Source: a virus
IMG/VR virus record: IMGVR_UViG_3300043399_000343
Coordinates: 1-26,915 of that record
DNA length: 26,915 bases
Strand: one strand, 5' to 3'
Part shown: positions 5,856-26,383 of the stretch, piece after piece
How the letters are laid out: each line of letters opens with the position of its first letter
Position numbering within the stretch: the stretch's first letter is position 1
Program-made: the position numbers and the translations under genes
Notes under the pieces: model-generated
What the model was told of the DNA's origin: nothing
Database searches by the model: none
What the model saw: only the letters and a program-made list of their open reading frames with translations

Positions 5856-8717
5856 ATGACCATTCCAAACACCGCCCGCAAGGCCGGGCCGCTTCTCGGC
5901 ACCGGCTCGCAAACCGCCTGGCCGTTCACGTTCAAAGTGTTCGCCGCCGGTGACGTGCAAGTCACCATCGCCAACAGCTCGGGCGTCGAAACGCTGCTGG
6001 TGCTCGGCACCGACTACTCGGTCTCGTTGAACGCCAACCAGGAGACAAGCCCCGGCGGCACGGTCACCTACCCGATCAGCGGCAGCGCATTGCCCGTGGG
6101 CAGCGTGCTCGCGATCATTGGTGACTTGGATTACGACCAGCCCCTGGACCTGCCGAGCGGTGGCAACTTCTCCCCGACCGCGCTCGAGAACCAGCTCGAC
6201 CGCTCCACGATGCAGATCCAGCAGCTGCGCGAGGAGATGAACCGCACGGCCAAGCTGCCGCCGACCAGCTCCGAATCCGTCGAGGCCCTGGTCGACGACC
6301 TGCAGCGCATCGCCGACAGCGCCGACAACCTGGACACCGTCGCCGACAACATCGCCGACATCAACACGGTGGCGGCCGACTTGAACGAGCCGGTGTCTGA
6401 GATCAACACGGTCGCAGTTTCGATTGCCAACGTGAACACCGTCGGCGCCAACATCACGAACGTCAACACGGTGGCGGGCATCAGCGCCAACGTCACGACC
6501 GTGGCGGGCATCGCCGCGAACGTCACGACCGTGGCTGGCATCGCTGCCAACGTCACGGCAGTGGCTGGCAACGCGACCAACATCAACGCGGTCGCAGGCA
6601 ACGCCACCAACATCAACGCCGTGGCCGCGAACGAAACCAACATCGACGCAGTTGCTGCCAACGAGGCGGCCATCGACACTGTGGCTGGCATCAGCGCCAA
6701 CGTCACGACCGTTGCTGGCATCTCGGCGGACGTGCAGACCGTGGCGGCCAACGTAGCTGACATCACCAACTTTGCCGACGTCTACCTGGGCCCAAAAACC
6801 AGCGACCCGACGTTGCGCAACGATGGCAGCGCGCTCCAGGTGGGTGACCTCTACTTCAACACCGTTGAGCAGGCCCTGCGCACCTACGGCGGTACGCAGT
6901 GGGTCGCAGGCACTGCGGGCACGATGTCCGTGCAGAACTTCTCTGGCAACGGTAGCACCACGGCGTTCACGCTGAACGCGGCGCCCGCCAGCGAGAACAA
7001 CACCCAGGTCTATATCGGTGGGGTGTACCAGCAAAAAGACCAGTACAGCGTCAGCGGCACCACGCTGACGTTCAGCAGCGCGCCGACCAGTGGCACCGAC
7101 AACATCGAGGTCGTGACGATCTCGACACTGGCGCTGGGCACCACCGACGCAGCGCTAGTCAGCACCACGCCTGGCACAGGGGGTTTGTGGTCGACAGTGC
7201 AGGGGTTCATCAACCAGCTGGTGAGCTCGATCGGCTCGTCGCTGATTGGGTTTATCCAGGCAGGCACTGGCGCAGTGCAGCGCACGACGCAAAGCAAGTT
7301 GCGCGACGCGGTTAGCGTCATGGACTTCGGGGCCAAGGGCGACGGCGTCACTGACGACACCGCAGCCATCCAGGCAGCGATCAACTACGTACGCAGCCAA
7401 CCGAATGGGCAGCTGTATTTCCCACCAAATTTGCCAAGCCAATTTTACAAAACCACCGCCCCGTTAACGTGCGATGGTTCGATCAAAATCGTTGGTGCTG
7501 GACCAAATTCGGTCACTGTTTTGGCTGTCGGCCTAAGTGCTGGCCAATACGTTCTTGACTTTGACCTGCCTGTTGCCACGAATTACTTTTTCCAAATTCA
7601 AGACATCACGTTTAGAAGCAACAACGGATCGCCCAGTGCTCTTCGCATGAAGAACACCGCGTATTTCCTGTTGAAAAACGTGCAGCTTTACAACGTCTAC
7701 GACGGCGTTCTCGTTACTGGTGGGAACTGCTTCTCAAACAATTTTGAGGAGGTTCATGGCTACAACATTGGGCGCAGCACGGTCTATTTCAGTGCGTTCA
7801 ACGGCGGCGGAAATTATAAATTTGACGCCTGCACATTCACTGGCCCCTACGGGTTTTACTTTGACAGCGCCAGTGCTGTTAATCAGATGACGTTCATTAG
7901 CTGCAACTTTGAGCAGTGCGTGACTAATAGCTTCCGATGTGACGGAACAATTCAAGGTCTTTCATTTTTTGGATGCCGCACGGAGGGCTCAGACGGTAAC
8001 GACTTTGTGGTCTACCCCTCGGCAGGAAACGAAGTTACAGGTCTTTCAATCACTGGCTGCTATTTCACAACCGACGCAGGGGCTTCTGTTCCGGTTCGCT
8101 TGGGTGGCAATGGCGGGCAAGTGCGCGGCTTCAGCATCTGCGGAAACCACGTCGAATACGCTGCCGCAAATTACTTTGTCGAGCTAAACGGCGAAGGCGA
8201 GTCCGGTGTTATTTCTGGCAACTACTTCAACCTTACGACAACGCTGCCAGCAAGCGCGCAACGCAACGGGGTCGTTGTTTTTGCAAACGAAAACGCTTCT
8301 GGCAAATGTGCCGAGTATTGGGGCGCAGAAAAATGGGGAGTTGTCACCGGCACCTGGACGCCAACCGATGCCAGTGGTGCGGGGCTCACGTTAGCCATTG
8401 CAGAAGGGCAATACATCAAGATCGGCCCGATGCTGCACTGGCGAGCGTTTGTTAGATACCCATCGACTGCAAGCGGTTCGGGGGCCGCCATCGGCGGGTT
8501 GCCTTACGCAATGAATACCCAGGGACAGTCCACGCTGGCACGAGCTGGCGCGTCTGTTGATTCCCATACCGCTGGCATCAATGTTGGAATTCGTCAATTT
8601 GTTGCGAGCAGCACCTCCTTTTCTTTCTACGATTCAATCAACCACGGCACCGCCAGGACAAATGCCAACTTGTCCGGTAGAGACTTAGAAATGTCCGGCT
8701 TCTACAAAATCGCATAA
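5856..8717 (+). CDS. Tail fibre / tailspike with T7-type N-terminus and beta-helix domain
   Basis: A 953-residue receptor-binding protein. Residues 1 to about 150 match the T7 gp17-type fibre N-terminus that attaches to the virion: a QTAWPFTF motif, a LxxGTDYSV motif, and LENQLDRSTMQIQQLREE before a proline-containing end. Residues about 157-305 are a decapeptide repeat array. A YLGPKTSDPTLRNDG module common in phage fibres follows. From about residue 485 (VMDFGAKGDGVTDDTAAIQ) comes the start signature of pectate-lyase-like right-handed beta-helices, so the C-terminal half is probably a trimeric spike that may bind or cut a surface polysaccharide. Catalytic residues cannot be assigned by eye. 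AGGAG lies 9 nt before the ATG. GC content drops sharply from about 7400, suggesting an exchanged module. Confidence 0.88.
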   Translation: MTIPNTARKAGPLLGTGSQTAWPFTFKVFAAGDVQVTIANSSGVETLLVLGTDYSVSLNANQETSPGGTVTYPISGSALPVGSVLAIIGDLDYDQPLDLPSGGNFSPTALENQLDRSTMQIQQLREEMNRTAKLPPTSSESVEALVDDLQRIADSADNLDTVADNIADINTVAADLNEPVSEINTVAVSIANVNTVGANITNVNTVAGISANVTTVAGIAANVTTVAGIAANVTAVAGNATNINAVAGNATNINAVAANETNIDAVAANEAAIDTVAGISANVTTVAGISADVQTVAANVADITNFADVYLGPKTSDPTLRNDGSALQVGDLYFNTVEQALRTYGGTQWVAGTAGTMSVQNFSGNGSTTAFTLNAAPASENNTQVYIGGVYQQKDQYSVSGTTLTFSSAPTSGTDNIEVVTISTLALGTTDAALVSTTPGTGGLWSTVQGFINQLVSSIGSSLIGFIQAGTGAVQRTTQSKLRDAVSVMDFGAKGDGVTDDTAAIQAAINYVRSQPNGQLYFPPNLPSQFYKTTAPLTCDGSIKIVGAGPNSVTVLAVGLSAGQYVLDFDLPVATNYFFQIQDITFRSNNGSPSALRMKNTAYFLLKNVQLYNVYDGVLVTGGNCFSNNFEEVHGYNIGRSTVYFSAFNGGGNYKFDACTFTGPYGFYFDSASAVNQMTFISCNFEQCVTNSFRCDGTIQGLSFFGCRTEGSDGNDFVVYPSAGNEVTGLSITGCYFTTDAGASVPVRLGGNGGQVRGFSICGNHVEYAAANYFVELNGEGESGVISGNYFNLTTTLPASAQRNGVVVFANENASGKCAEYWGAEKWGVVTGTWTPTDASGAGLTLAIAEGQYIKIGPMLHWRAFVRYPSTASGSGAAIGGLPYAMNTQGQSTLARAGASVDSHTAGINVGIRQFVASSTSFSFYDSINHGTARTNANLSGRDLEMSGFYKIA
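6325..6770 (+). repeat. Decapeptide (30-bp) tandem repeat array in the fibre
   Basis: About 13 degenerate 10-residue units of the type N-V/I-x-T/A-V-A-G/A-x-x-A, for example NVTTVAGIAA. Several adjacent 30-bp units are nearly identical at the DNA level (6477-6560), so copy number could change by slippage or recombination and alter fibre length. Repeats of this kind occur in other phage fibres. Confidence 0.85.
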
Positions 8718-21922: not shown

Positions 21923-22087
21923 TCAGCGCAAGAGCAACACCAGGCCGATCACGCCGCAAAAGCACGCGGCACTGGTCATGTAAAACAGGATGCGCACCTT
22001 GTTGCGCAGGTCCGCGATCGGGTCGTCGTAGAGGCCGCCGTGCTCGACCAGGTAGGCAATCCGCTGCCTGATGTATTCGTCGCTCAT
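21923..22087 (-). CDS. 54-residue membrane protein co-transcribed with the repressor
   Basis: ATG 22087 overlaps the repressor TGA (ATGA at 22084-22087); stop at 21923. N-terminus MSDEYIRQRIAYLVEHGGLYDDP is soluble; C-terminus (VRILFYMTSAACFCGVIGLVLLLR) is one TM segment. Since it is the only partner of the repressor before a terminator, it should be made in lysogens. A superinfection-exclusion or lysogenic-conversion role would fit, but this is inference. Confidence 0.7.
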   Translation of the reverse strand: MSDEYIRQRIAYLVEHGGLYDDPIADLRNKVRILFYMTSAACFCGVIGLVLLLR

Positions 22088-22500
22088 CGCCGTGTCAATC
22101 CTATGAGTTTGATGATGAAGGGTTCGTCCACCCGGCCGGTGAGCTTTGCGTGCTCGTAGGCCAGGCTGACTAGATTCGCGTAAACGTCGGGACTTGGATT
22201 GTGATCGGCGTCACGAAGCGCAGCAGCGACGGCGCGCACGCACGCAGATAAGGCGGCATCGTCCACTTGACGGGTGTTGCCGGCGTGCTCCTGGTCGAGC
22301 CAGCCGATCGGCAAGCCGAGCTTGGCCTCCATGTCCCGGGCGACTTTCTCGCTGATCTCGCGTGACGGGTTCGGGCCCACGAGCTGGGCCACGTATGAGC
22401 CGTTGCTGTGGCCGAGCTTCTTGGCCAGCGACGTCGGCCCGCCCCACTGGGTCATCAGACCGCGCAGGTTTTCGCGCCGGGTTTCATAGACGGATTTCAT
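22084..22500 (-). CDS. cI-like repressor (HTH, no peptidase domain)
   Basis: 138 residues from ATG 22500. The N-terminus MKSVYETRRENLRGLMTQWGGPTSLAKKLGHSNGSYVAQLVG is a lambda-repressor-like HTH (about 10-45), continuing with ISEKVARDMEAKLGLPIGWLD as in CI or Cro-type regulators. The C-terminus is helical and lacks the S24/LexA autocleavage domain, so classical RecA-driven cleavage is not expected. It is divergent from the cro-like gene across a 67-bp region with operators. No Shine-Dalgarno is seen before the ATG; a -10-like TACCCT ends 8 nt upstream, so the message may be leaderless like lambda cI from PRM. Confidence 0.82.
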   Translation of the reverse strand: MKSVYETRRENLRGLMTQWGGPTSLAKKLGHSNGSYVAQLVGPNPSREISEKVARDMEAKLGLPIGWLDQEHAGNTRQVDDAALSACVRAVAAALRDADHNPSPDVYANLVSLAYEHAKLTGRVDEPFIIKLIGLTRR

Positions 22501-22567
22501 GGCCGGGCAGGGTAGCAAGACTTAGCGGCTTGCTGCAATAGCTTTACAGCCTGCTAAACTCACGGCC
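22501..22567. promoter_or_regulatory. Divergent cI/cro control region with operators
   Basis: Contains TTTACAGCCTGCTAAA (22543-22558), TTAGCGGCTTGCTGCAA (22522-22538) and a TAGCA half-site (22513-22517). The first site embeds the extended -10 TGCTAAACT (22552-22560) of the rightward promoter. Leftward, TTGCAG (22538-22533) and TACCCT (22514-22509) could be the repressor promoter. Both transcripts would begin at or very near their ATGs. Confidence 0.7.
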
Positions 22568-22897
22568 ATGAAAACCATCACTTCCATGAAGGCCTGGATG
22601 GCCGCCGCCACCGTCGACGAACAGGAAACCCTCGCCGAGCGCGTCGGGACCACGCGCGGCATGTTGTACCAATACGCCGGCGGGCACCGCACCGCGAGCG
22701 CCGAGCGCGCCGGCGCCATCGAGCGGGCCACCGCCGAGATGCACAAGGCCAGCAAGGGCCGACTGCCCAAGATCTACCGCACCGATCTGTCTGAGGCCTG
22801 CCTTCAGTGCGAGTACGCACAGAAGTGCCTCAAGGGCCAGGCGGTGGTGTCCGAGTTCCCCATCGTTGACGCCCGACAACTGGAGCTGACCTTATGA
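22568..22897 (+). CDS. Cro/YdaS-like HTH protein with C-terminal cysteine cluster
   Basis: 109 residues, divergent from the repressor. DEQETLAERVGTTRGMLYQYAGGHRTASAERAGAIERAT is a Cro/YdaS-type HTH (about 18-55). The tail has CLQCEYAQKC (C78, C81, C87), a possible metal or redox site that lambda Cro lacks. It is expected to repress the cI promoter and favour lytic growth; that is inferred from position. It overlaps the next small gene as ATGA. A -10-like TAAACT ends 7 nt before the ATG and no ribosome site is visible. Confidence 0.8.
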   Translation: MKTITSMKAWMAAATVDEQETLAERVGTTRGMLYQYAGGHRTASAERAGAIERATAEMHKASKGRLPKIYRTDLSEACLQCEYAQKCLKGQAVVSEFPIVDARQLELTL

Positions 22898-23345: not shown

Positions 23346-23372
23346 CCAACACCCACCGGAGGCCGCCCATGA
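23343..23372 (+). CDS. Nine-residue leader peptide MPTPTGGRP
   Basis: ATG 23343 lies 5 nt after GAAAGC, exactly as the polymerase ATG does in the sister element. The frame stops at TGA 23370-23372, overlapping the primase-helicase ATG (ATGA), so termination here could feed ribosomes to the main gene. The GGAGG serving the main gene lies inside this frame. The PTP and GGRP content might slow ribosomes. Existence as a translated peptide is inference. Confidence 0.4.
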   Translation: MPTPTGGRP

Positions 23373-25345
23373 ATGCGGTCACCACCATCAAACCCCATCT
23401 GACTTCGATCGTCGCACCCGACGAAATGCGCAACCTGCCCGCCTGGCTCGTGTGGCGCTTCGAGTACCACGAGGGCGAAGACAAGCCCCGCAAAGTCCCG
23501 TATTACACGGGCGGACCCAAGCGCCACGGCAAGCAGGGCTCACCACAAGATCTTCAGCAACTGACCACGTTTGACGCTGCGCGCACAGCTGCAGCGCGTC
23601 GTGGTTTTGATGGCGTGGGCTTCGTGCCCATGCCCGAGTTCAACATCTGCGCGCTCGACTTTGACCACTGCGTCACCAACGGCCAGGTGCACCCCGACCT
23701 CGAGGCGATCGTCACTGGCACGTATGCCGAGTACAGCCCCAGCGGCACGGGCGTGCGCGCCTTCGTCAAGGGCCAGTACGGCAACAGCAAGGCCCGCGGC
23801 GAGCCCTACGGGTTCGAGGTGTTCAGCTCCAAGGGTTTCGTCACGGTCACGGGCAACCGCCTGGACATCGTCGACATCCTTGGCAACGAGAACACGATCG
23901 CCGAGCTCGACGGTCCAGTGCGTGCCCTGTGCGCCAAGCGCTTTGCCCGCGAGCTCCCCGAGACCGGCGTCAGTGCCGGCGAGCCATTGGGTCTCACCCA
24001 GGCGCAGATCGACAAGTGCCTGAGCGTGATCGACGCCGACATCGGCCACGACGAGTGGCTCAGTGTGGGCATGGCGCTGCACCACGAGACCCAGGGCGAG
24101 GGCTTCGACCTGTGGAACGACTGGTCGGAGCTCGGCAGCAAGTACCCAGGGCGCGAGGTGCTGCTGCACCGGTGGTCATCCTTTGGCAAGACGCACGATC
24201 GCACCGTGACCGCGCGCAGCCTGGTGCACCTGGCCAACGAGCACGGCGCCGGCATCAACTTGAACGGCCCGGCGGCGCTCGAGGAATTTGACGATTTGGA
24301 GCCTGTCGACAATCCGACACCCGACGACAAGCCGATGCGCTTCCAGGTGCTCTCAGCTGACGAGTTCAGCAACCGGCCACCACCGACCTGGATCATCAAG
24401 CACGTACTACCCCAGGCCGAGCTCGTGGTGCTTTATGGTGCCAGCGGCGCCGGCAAGAGTTTTATGGCGCTCGACATGGCCGGCGCGATCGCTCGCGGCC
24501 TGCCCTGGCGGGGCAAGAAGGTCAAGCAAGGCAGGGTGGTGTACATCGCCGCCGAGGGCGCCGGGGGCTTTCGCAACCGCATGCAGGCCTACGCCACCCA
24601 GCACCAGGTCAACCTGGCCGAGCTCGACATCGGCGTGATCCACGCCGCACCCAACCTGATTCTGAAAGAGGACGCGCTCGACGTGGCCAAGGCCATCAAG
24701 GCCAGCGGTGGCGCCGACGTCGTCATCGTCGACACCTTTGCCCAGACCACACCAGGCGCGAACGAGAACGCCGGCGAGGACATGGGCAAGGCCCTGGCCC
24801 ACTGCAAAGGCATTCACCGCGCCACGGGCGCTGTGGTCGTGCTGGTGCACCACGCGGGCAAGGACCCCACCAAGGGGGCCAGGGGCTGGTCAGGCCTGCG
24901 CGCTGCAGCCGACGCCGAGCTCGAGGTCGTTCGCGGCGCCACGGGGCGCGCGTTGCGTCTGACCAAGAGCAAGGACGGCGAGGACGAGCTTGAGTGGGGC
25001 TTCGACCTCGAGGTGGTGCAGATCGGCGTCGACGAGGATCTCGAGCCCATCACCAGCTGCGTGGTGATCGAGACGGCCATGCCAGTGATCGGCGCCGGTG
25101 CCGTGCGCAAGCTGGGTGTGGTCGAGAAGGTGGTCAACGATGTGATCCAAGAGTTCGCGGTCGCACAGACCGAGGGCATCGAGGTGGGCCCGGTGCTGGC
25201 CGAGGCGGTCAAACGCATGGAGCCGCCGACCGATGGCAAGCGGGACACTCGCAAGATGCGTGCTCGCAAGGCGCTCGAATCACTGTGCTCGGGCGACGAT
25301 TCACCGTATTGGATTGCAGACGATGGCTGCATCGCGGTGTGCTGA
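23369..25345 (+). CDS. Bifunctional primase (prim-pol) and RepA-type helicase
   Basis: 658 residues. An N-terminal prim-pol-like domain has NICALDFDH (D97, D99), EYSPSGTGVR (121-130) and EVFSSKGFVTVTGNR (150-164). A PriCT_2-like linker (about 205-290, DEWLSVGMALHHE and W269) follows. The C-terminal RepA/AAA_25 ATPase shows Walker A GASGAGKS (357-364), Walker B VVIVDT (451-456) and LVHHAGKD (492-499), a hexameric-helicase hallmark. It should open and prime phage DNA for the polymerase encoded on the other strand. GGAGG sits 6 nt before ATG 23369. It lies beyond the immunity region, under an operator-promoter. Confidence 0.93.
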   Translation: MNAVTTIKPHLTSIVAPDEMRNLPAWLVWRFEYHEGEDKPRKVPYYTGGPKRHGKQGSPQDLQQLTTFDAARTAAARRGFDGVGFVPMPEFNICALDFDHCVTNGQVHPDLEAIVTGTYAEYSPSGTGVRAFVKGQYGNSKARGEPYGFEVFSSKGFVTVTGNRLDIVDILGNENTIAELDGPVRALCAKRFARELPETGVSAGEPLGLTQAQIDKCLSVIDADIGHDEWLSVGMALHHETQGEGFDLWNDWSELGSKYPGREVLLHRWSSFGKTHDRTVTARSLVHLANEHGAGINLNGPAALEEFDDLEPVDNPTPDDKPMRFQVLSADEFSNRPPPTWIIKHVLPQAELVVLYGASGAGKSFMALDMAGAIARGLPWRGKKVKQGRVVYIAAEGAGGFRNRMQAYATQHQVNLAELDIGVIHAAPNLILKEDALDVAKAIKASGGADVVIVDTFAQTTPGANENAGEDMGKALAHCKGIHRATGAVVVLVHHAGKDPTKGARGWSGLRAAADAELEVVRGATGRALRLTKSKDGEDELEWGFDLEVVQIGVDEDLEPITSCVVIETAMPVIGAGAVRKLGVVEKVVNDVIQEFAVAQTEGIEVGPVLAEAVKRMEPPTDGKRDTRKMRARKALESLCSGDDSPYWIADDGCIAVC

Positions 25346-25373
25346 ACATGCAAAACATTACGCATTCACCGAT

Positions 25374-25481
25374 GCAACACTGCAACACGACGTGCAACTT
25401 GCAATTTGTTGCAGTGTTGCGCAGCTTCAAAAAGTGCAATGCAACGCAACACCACCCTATAGGGGTGTTGCGGTGTTGCAC
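25374..25481. repeat. Clustered GCAAC/GTTGC repeats with two dyads
   Basis: Nine copies of GCAAC in both orientations within about 110 bp. Dyad 1 has 13-bp perfect arms, GCAACACTGCAAC (25374-25386) and its complement (25408-25420). Dyad 2 has 9-bp arms CGCAACACC (25445-25453) and GGTGTTGCG (25464-25472) around the palindrome CCCTATAGGG, with outer GTGCAA/TTGCAC. No convincing gene spans 25346-25586. Placement between the primase-helicase and terminase suggests a replication origin or a pac/cos site. Confidence 0.6.
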
Positions 25482-25586
25482 TGAAGCGGGGGCAATTACA
25501 TGCTGAATGAGCATTTGATTACGCGTTCAGCCCTGGAACACCGAGCACGCAACGAACGCGCAAAACTTTGCAAGAAAGGGCTGGTC

Positions 25587-25823
25587 ATGCAGAAACTGGT
25601 CGCACTGAACGAAAACGGCAGGCGCATTGGCGAGAGCCACCCACGCGCCAAACTCCTGGACCACGAGGTCGATCAGGTCCTGGCACTGCTGGAGGCTGGG
25701 CTGAGCTACGCCGAGGTGGCGCTCAAGTTCGACGTCAGCAAGTCCTGCGTGGCGCACATCGCCACCGGCCGACGTCGTGGCCAGGCCGTCGAGCGCACCG
25801 TGCGCGTGTCCGTCAACCGATAG
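25587..25823 (+). CDS. Small HTH protein upstream of terminase
   Basis: 78 residues from ATG 25587, with AAAGG 8 nt upstream; an in-frame ATG at 25500 is possible but lacks a ribosome site and adds non-conserved residues. RIGESHPRAKLLDHEVDQVLALLEAGLSYAEVALKFDVSKSCVAHIATGRRR is a resolvase/Hin-type HTH, widespread in phage genomes beside terminase. It may regulate late genes or recognise the repeats just upstream. Its last codons contain the late-promoter-like word GTGTCCGT. Confidence 0.78.
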   Translation: MQKLVALNENGRRIGESHPRAKLLDHEVDQVLALLEAGLSYAEVALKFDVSKSCVAHIATGRRRGQAVERTVRVSVNR

Positions 25824-25843: not shown

Positions 25844-26383
25844 ATGAGCACCAAACCCTTCGACTGGAAACCCGCCTACCTGGCAGCACTGCGGCAAGTG
25901 CCGGTGATCAAGCACGCCTGCGAGGCGGCTGGCATCGACCGCACGACCGCCTGGCGAGCCCGTGAAGACGAGGAGTTCGCCAAGGCCGAGCAGGAGGCCA
26001 TGGAGGAGGGCATCGACCGCGCCGAGGCCGAGGCCTTCCGCCGTGGCGTTGTGGGCTTTGAGGAGCCTGTGATCGACAAGGGGCGCCTGGCCTACCGCTA
26101 TGAGCGCTATGAGGTCGAAGACATTGACGGCCACAAGGAAGAGAAATATCGGCTGATGCTGGACGAGCACGGCCAGCCGATCCCGCTCACCGTGCGTAAG
26201 CACAGCGACGCCATGCTGGGCTTGGTGCTCAAGGGCCGACGCAAGAAGGTCTACGCCGACCGCACCGAGCTCACGGGGCCCGAGGGTGCGCCGGTCGTGA
26301 TCGACGAGACCGCCAAGGCTGCGCGTGTGGCGCAGCTGCTGGCGCTCGCCCAGCAACGCAAAGATTTTGAGGACCTTGCATGA
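25844..26383 (+). CDS. Terminase small subunit
   Basis: 179 residues. An N-terminal HTH (VIKHACEAAGIDRTTAWRAREDEEFAKAEQEA), a middle region with GVVGFEEPVIDKG, and the C-terminal motif MLGLVLKGRRKKVYADRTELTG characteristic of this small terminase family. It would recognise the packaging site and load the large subunit. The start has no clear Shine-Dalgarno sequence. It overlaps the next small gene by ATGA. The GCAAC repeat cluster lies about 360 bp upstream. Confidence 0.88.
   Translation: MSTKPFDWKPAYLAALRQVPVIKHACEAAGIDRTTAWRAREDEEFAKAEQEAMEEGIDRAEAEAFRRGVVGFEEPVIDKGRLAYRYERYEVEDIDGHKEEKYRLMLDEHGQPIPLTVRKHSDAMLGLVLKGRRKKVYADRTELTGPEGAPVVIDETAKAARVAQLLALAQQRKDFEDLA

What the first reader, a model, noticed from the sequence alone, without database searches (positions are those of the whole stretch)
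25374..25481. GCAAC/GTTGC cluster: candidate origin or packaging site
Nine pentamers in two nested dyads (13-bp and 9-bp perfect arms) sit in a non-coding gap between the primase-helicase gene and the small HTH and terminase genes. Density, symmetry and the central CCCTATAGGG exceed what a promoter needs. No T-run, so not a terminator. The binding protein could be the HTH product at 25587, the terminase small subunit, or a replication initiator.
Basis: partly seen in the sequence, partly recalled or inferred. Interest (0 to 1): 0.57.

Follow-up and report, generated by a model that had tools for sequence, protein, structure and literature searches.

The report
Phage replication origin with matching initiator
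A cluster of short DNA repeats next to a phage's primase-helicase gene looks like the place where that protein starts copying the phage DNA, and across related phages the repeat sequence changes in step with one amino acid in the protein's DNA-reading helix.

Summary
The cluster is real: nine GCAAC/GTTGC copies in 108 bp (at most 3 elsewhere in the window; at most 5 in 200 Markov copies), in two adjacent dyads. It lies just downstream of the primase-helicase gene and recurs there in relatives. A blind scan called a short-repeat array within 700 bp of this gene in 104 of 192 distinct relatives (two low-complexity calls dropped). The architecture persists but the repeat unit changes (GCAAC, GCACC, GCCAC, GCTTC, CCTTCA, CGAACA and others). 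The unit follows the primase-helicase, not the HTH protein: of 652 primase columns, residue 631 in the recognition helix of a C-terminal winged helix best separates GCAAC from GCACC (MCC 0.96, next 0.58; best HTH column 0.61). R/K goes with GCAAC, H with GCACC. On a tree built without that domain the unit changed at least 13 times, and residue 631 went with it in 7 of 8 independent pairs. A rule noted beforehand held in 6 of 6 new loci. Best reading: iterons of a replication origin recognised by the fused primase-helicase, like SaPI/PICI and P4 replicons. Packaging site and HTH operator are not supported. Nothing was tested at the bench.

The parts
23369..25345 (+). Primase-helicase gene (658 aa): N-terminal primase-polymerase, PriCT-2, RSF1010-RepA-like helicase (AAA_25), C-terminal winged helix; proposed initiator
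   Evidence: Pfam PriCT_2 5e-18, AAA_25 1.3e-42; PDB sequence matches 7ola residues 14-180 and RSF1010 RepA 1g8y residues 331-506
25118..25342 (+). C-terminal winged-helix domain (residues about 584-658), proposed iteron reader
   Evidence: AlphaFold model of residues 559-658: mean pLDDT 86, three helices and a two-strand wing; winged-helix folds fill the structural matches
25247..25285 (+). Recognition helix (residues 628-639) with its N-cap T627 (p3); R631 (p7) is codon 25259-25261
   Evidence: Helix in the model; residue 631 is the best predictor of the unit among 652 columns; p3 and p7 tables
25349..25361 (.). Constant palindrome TGCAAAACATTAC, first copy
   Evidence: Motif within 500 bp downstream in 66 of 102 array loci, against 3 of 102 control stretches inside the primase gene
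25374..25420 (.). Dyad A: three forward and two inverted GCAAC units, perfect 14-nt arms
   Evidence: same layout in relatives
25424..25429 (.). 5' half of the outer stem of dyad B (GCTTCA)
   Evidence: Pairs with 25482-25487 in the fold; outer stem fits its own partner better than other loci's partners
25437..25483 (.). Dyad B: GCAACGCAAC, centre CCCTATAGGG (25455-25464), two inverted units
   Evidence: TA-loop hairpin in 46 of 102 arrays, 1 of 102 in each of two control stretches
25482..25487 (.). 3' half of the outer stem of dyad B (TGAAGC)
25559..25571 (.). Constant palindrome CGCAAAACTTTGC, second copy
25587..25823 (+).
   Evidence: PF02796 just below its cut-off; relatives match from about residue 26-30 on
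25844..26383 (+). Terminase small subunit gene; neighbour
   Evidence: phrog_4044, E 9.9e-26

Best explanation
The cluster is the phage's replication origin. The GCAAC units are iterons bound by the C-terminal winged helix of the primase-helicase encoded just upstream. Several copies in two dyads would load the fused helicase as oligomers on both sides of a meltable region; the DNA opens, dyad B and its CTATAG centre can form a hairpin, and the N-terminal primase-polymerase primes nearby. Shown here by sequence: the array, its conserved place and layout, and the covariation of unit and recognition helix. Inferred: binding itself, melting, loading, priming and origin activity. Each phage lineage has its own iteron/helix pair; residue 631 (R/K or H) goes with the fourth base (GCAAC or GCACC) and residue 627 (T/S, R/K or Q/N) with the third.
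For: Arrays called blind within 700 bp downstream of the gene in 104 of 192 distinct loci. Residue 631 best of 652 primase columns, MCC 0.96 against 0.58 for the next. In 72 of the 102 usable array loci where helix and GCNNC unit could be aligned: H with C in 18, H without C in 1, other residue with C in 1, other without C in 52; p3 T/S/A with base A in 63 of 63, other p3 with another base in 9 of 9. On a tree without the C-terminal 115 residues the unit changed at least 13 times; 7 of 8 independent pairs agree, 0 oppose, p = 0.016. Close sisters L141/L148: bodies 95% identical, H versus R, GCACC versus GCAAC. Rule noted held in 6 of 6 new loci. Three R-type loci without a nearby array carry a GCAAC array 0.7-2.2 kb downstream (L121, L150, L258). 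Winged-helix model, pLDDT 86.
Against: No binding or replication data. 88 of 192 loci have no array called nearby, many of them in a sister clade (helix KRDIRRQS and similar) whose origin I did not find. H-type L143, L245 and L249 show no array of either kind. Exceptions to the rule: L178 (R with GCACC) and L200 (H with GCTTC). Whole-domain similarity to the window predicts the unit only weakly (AUC 0.78, against 0.73 for HTH, 0.68 for TerS, 0.74 for the primase body). L433 (p3 R, p7 R) has another unit than GCCAC. GC skew gives no clear support.
Confidence: 0.88

Rival explanations
1. The array is an operator or autoregulatory site: the primase-helicase binds it mainly to control transcription of the downstream HTH-terminase genes or to limit its own action, with the true origin elsewhere.
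For: Lies between the primase gene and HTH/terminase genes; covariation shows only that this protein reads it.
Against: No sigma-70-like promoter was found; in bacterial-genome relatives arrays also lie directly downstream of the gene; TA-centred hairpin and two-dyad layout are more than an operator needs.
Confidence: 0.06
2. Packaging (cos or pac) site bound by the small terminase.
For: Close to terS; CCCTATAGGG is a rotationally symmetric centre; one 44.5-kb contig (L003) ends just after the HTH gene.
Against: Unit changes do not follow TerS (L014, TerS 43% identical, has GCAAC; L017, TerS 68%, does not); full-length contigs end at varied places, and the L034 contig overlaps itself inside the primase gene.
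Confidence: 0.03
3. Operator of the small HTH protein.
For: The HTH gene follows at once, and a relative lies downstream in most array loci.
Against: Best HTH column MCC 0.61 against 0.95 for primase residue 631 on the same rows. The constant palindromes at 25349 and 25559 are a better candidate for it, though HTH presence and palindrome are only weakly associated (p = 0.096).
Confidence: 0.02
4. A structured RNA or transcription terminator.
For: Strong hairpins; the outer stem fits its own partner.
Against: No T-run and no terminator-like site; no Rfam family near its gathering score; the repeat unit follows a DNA-reading helix.
Confidence: 0.01

Closest known systems
SaPI / PICI pri-rep-ori replicons
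   Same: Primase and initiator helicase (sometimes fused) followed at once by an origin of short iterons, read by the Rep C-terminal domain; two iteron sets flanking a melting region in E. coli PICIs (passages of PMC7581432, PMC6092414).
   Different: Here the carrier is a full-size phage with its own terminase and polymerase; the helicase is RSF1010-RepA/RecA-like; the centre is a GC-stem TA-loop hairpin; the unit is read by a helix whose residues can be matched to bases.
Satellite phage P4 alpha protein with its ori repeats
   Same: One protein with primase, helicase and a winged-helix origin-binding domain acting on repeats (as described in PMC4234260, passages).
   Different: P4 primase is of the Toprim type (same passages); here the N-terminus matches the primase-polymerase chains 7ola and 6a9w (that these are of the archaeo-eukaryotic type is recalled). 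P4's repeat layout was not compared here.
pRN1 and Bordetella phage BIP-1 stem-loop origins
   Same: AEP primase + helicase + C-terminal winged helix, with a large stem-loop origin just downstream of the gene, conserved in structure but not in sequence (PMC4234260 passages).
   Different: That paper reports no iteron structure in pRN1; here the stems are built of repeated units that follow the protein.
RSF1010 oriV (RepA helicase, RepB' primase, RepC iteron binder)
   Same: Helicase domain is similar to RepA (1g8y, E 8.4e-8); iterons plus hairpins.
   Different: RSF1010 uses three proteins with a separate iteron binder (PMC4234260 passage); here one protein carries all.
Geminivirus Rep and its iterons
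   Same: Short iterons that differ between close relatives and are matched to their Rep (abstract start of PMC12548392, search listing).
   Different: Unrelated protein and replication mode; analogy only.

Membership tests
Iteron-type replication origin | Several copies of a short unit in a small non-coding region | tested here: met
   9 in 108 bp
Iteron-type replication origin | Unit specific to, and covarying with, the replication initiator | tested here: met
   (6 of 6 new loci)
Iteron-type replication origin | Drives autonomous replication | not testable with these tools
   needs a plasmid assay
Iteron-type replication origin | AT-rich melting element | tested here: inconclusive
   Only short AT stretches (TTGCAATTTG, TTCAAAAAG) and a TA loop were seen in the sequence; not measured
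SaPI/PICI pri-rep-ori replicon | Origin directly downstream of a (fused) primase-helicase gene | tested here: met
   Array place; that it is an origin is inferred
SaPI/PICI pri-rep-ori replicon | Belongs to a satellite island without its own full set of packaging and replication genes | tested here: not met
   Own small terminase, a following terminase-like ORF and a DNA polymerase in the window; so it works like, but is not, a PICI
P4 alpha/ori | Primase, helicase and winged-helix domain in one protein | tested here: met
P4 alpha/ori | Homology of the winged helix to the P4 origin-binding domain | tested here: inconclusive
   P4 domain not among the listed matches; only a common winged-helix fold is shown
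cos/pac packaging site | Packaged DNA ends at or near the site | tested here: inconclusive
   Contig ends vary; virion ends not available
Intrinsic terminator | GC hairpin followed by a T-run | tested here: not met
   0 found

The most novel reading that the evidence does not exclude
A large, mostly uncultured phage family carries a readable recognition code for replication origins: two helix positions of the initiator specify two bases of the iteron, and lineages switch the pair repeatedly. Origin specificity would thus evolve quickly, perhaps to keep replicons of co-resident phages, prophages and satellites from using each other's origin, so that an origin could be predicted from protein sequence alone. 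A second subfamily in bacterial genomes fits: helix start K with CGGGAA or TGGGAA (9 of 9), D with CGGGGA (5 of 5) (post hoc).
Probability: 0.4. Interest if true: 0.75.

Novelty: new variant of a known kind. Interest (0 to 1): 0.64.

Why it matters
It gives a phage family known almost only from metagenomes a located candidate origin and a named initiator, and turns a general question (how initiator and origin change specificity together without losing function) into something directly testable with natural pairs. If the code holds at the bench, origins and replicon compatibility groups could be read from sequence for many uncultured phages and prophages.

Tried and rejected
Packaging site, HTH operator, terminator, promoter and RNA element were considered and set aside for the reasons given under the rivals. 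Overall protein similarity as a predictor of the unit was uninformative (AUC 0.68-0.78). A first test of the outer stem of dyad B with 22-nt flanks showed nothing against shuffled partners (6.21 against 6.13). A second on 25 rows chosen by eye was positive but selected; the unselected version on all 56 rows with shorter flanks gave 5.55 against 4.53, 0 of 2000 shuffles (GCACC rows alone 33 of 2000). Rows are related, and flank length was chosen, so I count it as suggestive only. A first tally of hairpins between units mixed dyads A and B and was not used. A hairpin count with a strict symmetric loop gave 34 of 102 against 7 of 102; the relaxed loop definition, chosen after that, gave 46 against 1 and 1. 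The whole-genome hold-out gave 84 loci but none new with the RD[TS]R helix, so it could not test the main rule; it showed the second K/D pattern after the fact. Isolated phages: only four Caulobacter phages match the whole primase (45%), and the one read (GB2A) had no array in the blind test. The Curvibacter phage PCA1 locus was not significant. GC skew was uninformative. Fold search found no match at E <= 0.001; VIA-align rows are generic winged helices. In one search my large-terminase query was translated in the wrong frame; nothing is drawn from it. L157 and L158 were dropped as low-complexity calls; L010 and L093 left out of the tree for short bodies; L619 dropped as too short.

Print search: searches of open PMC text listed no paper that I recognised as describing this code in these phages; subscription papers were not searched, so absence from print is not claimed. 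Papers: passages seen of PMC7581432, PMC7145576, PMC4234260 and PMC6092414; search listing or abstract start only for PMC12548392.

Full report
The observation. Nine GCAAC/GTTGC pentamers lie in 25374-25481. The rest of the window never exceeds three per 108 bp, and 200 Markov copies of the window never exceeded five. They form two adjacent dyads, A (25374-25420, perfect 14-nt arms) and B (25437-25483, centre CCCTATAGGG), and the strand folds with z = -7.6. There is no terminator-like or sigma-70-like site, no tRNA in the window and no Rfam family near its gathering score in 25200-25700.

Surroundings. Upstream is a 658-aa primase-helicase: primase-polymerase N-terminus, PriCT-2, an AAA_25 helicase similar to RSF1010 RepA, and a C-terminal winged helix. 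Downstream are a small HTH gene, probably starting at 25587 rather than 25500, then the small terminase gene and, from about 26490, an ORF that by position and its P-loop-like stretch is the large one (not searched). A repressor-like and a Cro/YdaS-like gene lie divergently at 22.1-22.9 kb, so the phage is probably temperate. Related proteins are rare in isolated phages but common in IMG/VR contigs (542 relatives in one scan) and present in genomes and MAGs of Azonexus, Hydrogenophaga, Zoogloea, Magnetospirillum and others (34 loci).

Conserved place, changing unit. In relatives the array stays between primase-helicase and HTH genes. Some relatives keep the layout (forward units, inverted units, spacer, forward units, TA-centred hairpin, inverted units) but with another unit: CCTTCA (L012, L017), CCTACT (L080), CGAACA (L027), CCAACA (L083), GCACC (L090), GCCAC (L162, L327), GCTTC (L236), GCTAC (L321) and others. 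A blind count of the commonest 6-mer in 200-bp windows against 40 dinucleotide shuffles called an array within 700 bp in 104 of 192 distinct loci. Two were low complexity and dropped, leaving 102.

Which protein reads it. I aligned the primases of 64 loci with GCAAC or GCACC arrays. Of 652 columns, window residue 631 stands alone: H against not-H separates the two units with MCC 0.96; the next column reaches 0.58. The best of 77 HTH columns reaches 0.61 in the 54 loci that have it, where residue 631 reaches 0.95. Residue 631 lies in the third helix (628-639) of the predicted winged helix. Over 72 of 102 loci that could be aligned, H goes with C as fourth base in 18 of 19 and other residues with another base in 52 of 53; the residue four positions earlier (627) goes with the third base without exception: T/S/A with A in 63 of 63, R/K with C in 4 of 4, Q/N with T in 5 of 5. 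The 30 loci left out have other helix or unit types.

Is it only kinship? A tree built without the C-terminal 115 residues (62 loci) needs at least 13 changes of unit and 12 of residue 631. In 8 independent pairs on supported branches the residue goes with the unit in 7, against it in none, and does not differ in 1 (sign test p = 0.016). The sisters L141 and L148 have bodies 95% identical but H/GCACC and R/GCAAC.

Prediction. The rule was written down. The genome searches that followed (draws of 399, 395, 399 and 296 genomes, overlapping in part) gave no new protein with this helix. The last two viral scans gave six usable new ones; all six obeyed, four H with GCACC and two R with GCAAC. Three R-type loci without a near array have a GCAAC cluster 0.7, 1.7 and 2.2 kb downstream (7, 10 and 8 copies in 200 bp). 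Against: three H-type loci (L143, L245, L249) show neither array; L178 and L200 break the rule; L433 does not fit it.

Mechanism. Shown: array, place, layout, covariation. Inferred from known replicons: the winged helix binds the iterons and the fused helicase oligomerises there, opens the DNA and primes. SaPI Rep and SCCmec Cch2 bind iterons downstream of their genes through a C-terminal domain (PMC7581432, passages); E. coli PICI origins have two iteron sets flanking an AT-rich region (PMC6092414, passages); pRN1 and phage BIP-1 have a stem-loop downstream of a primase-helicase-winged-helix protein (PMC4234260, passages). The TA-loop hairpin at the centre of dyad B (46 of 102 arrays, 1 of 102 in each control) and the matched outer stem (suggestive) hint that hairpin extrusion or single-strand priming is part of it.

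Not packaging. In 21 of 23 contigs of 42-47 kb the primase was found, at many positions relative to the contig ends, and one contig overlaps itself inside the primase gene, as expected of circular or permuted molecules. This does not exclude a pac site but gives no sign of one here.

Novelty. Origin-plus-initiator modules of this kind are known. New here, as far as the searched papers go, are the carrier family, the RepA-type helicase fused to an iteron-reading winged helix, the conserved two-dyad layout with exchangeable unit, and a residue-to-base correspondence strong enough to predict new cases.

Noticed in passing
25349-25361 and 25559-25571: A constant palindrome (YGCAAAANNTTRC) flanks the array whatever its unit: 66 of 102 array loci against 3 of 102 controls. 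Its binder is unknown; the HTH protein is a candidate, association p = 0.096.
   Followed up: partly
L435, L437, L444, L473, L484, L485, L487, L488, L489 versus L443, L446, L476, L482, L491: In a second subfamily from bacterial genomes, helix start K goes with CGGGAA/TGGGAA (9 of 9) and D with CGGGGA (5 of 5) downstream of the gene; some of these arrays fall short of the blind threshold.
   Followed up: partly
L256, L257, L273, L347, L384, L422, L427 and others: A sister clade of the primase-helicase (helices KRDIRRQS and similar) has no short-repeat array within 700 bp downstream; where its origin lies is open.
   Followed up: no
22084-22518 (-) and 22568-22897 (+): Divergent repressor-like and Cro/YdaS-like genes, the mark of a temperate phage.
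   Followed up: no
6181-6500: Repeated GCCGAC words within the long ORF 5856-8717, whose protein holds repeated 'NVTTVAGI'-like stretches.
   Followed up: no
L034 contig (44,698 bases): The contig's two ends overlap inside the primase gene (model positions 427-468 at both ends), so the genome of about 44.6 kb assembles as a circle.
   Followed up: partly
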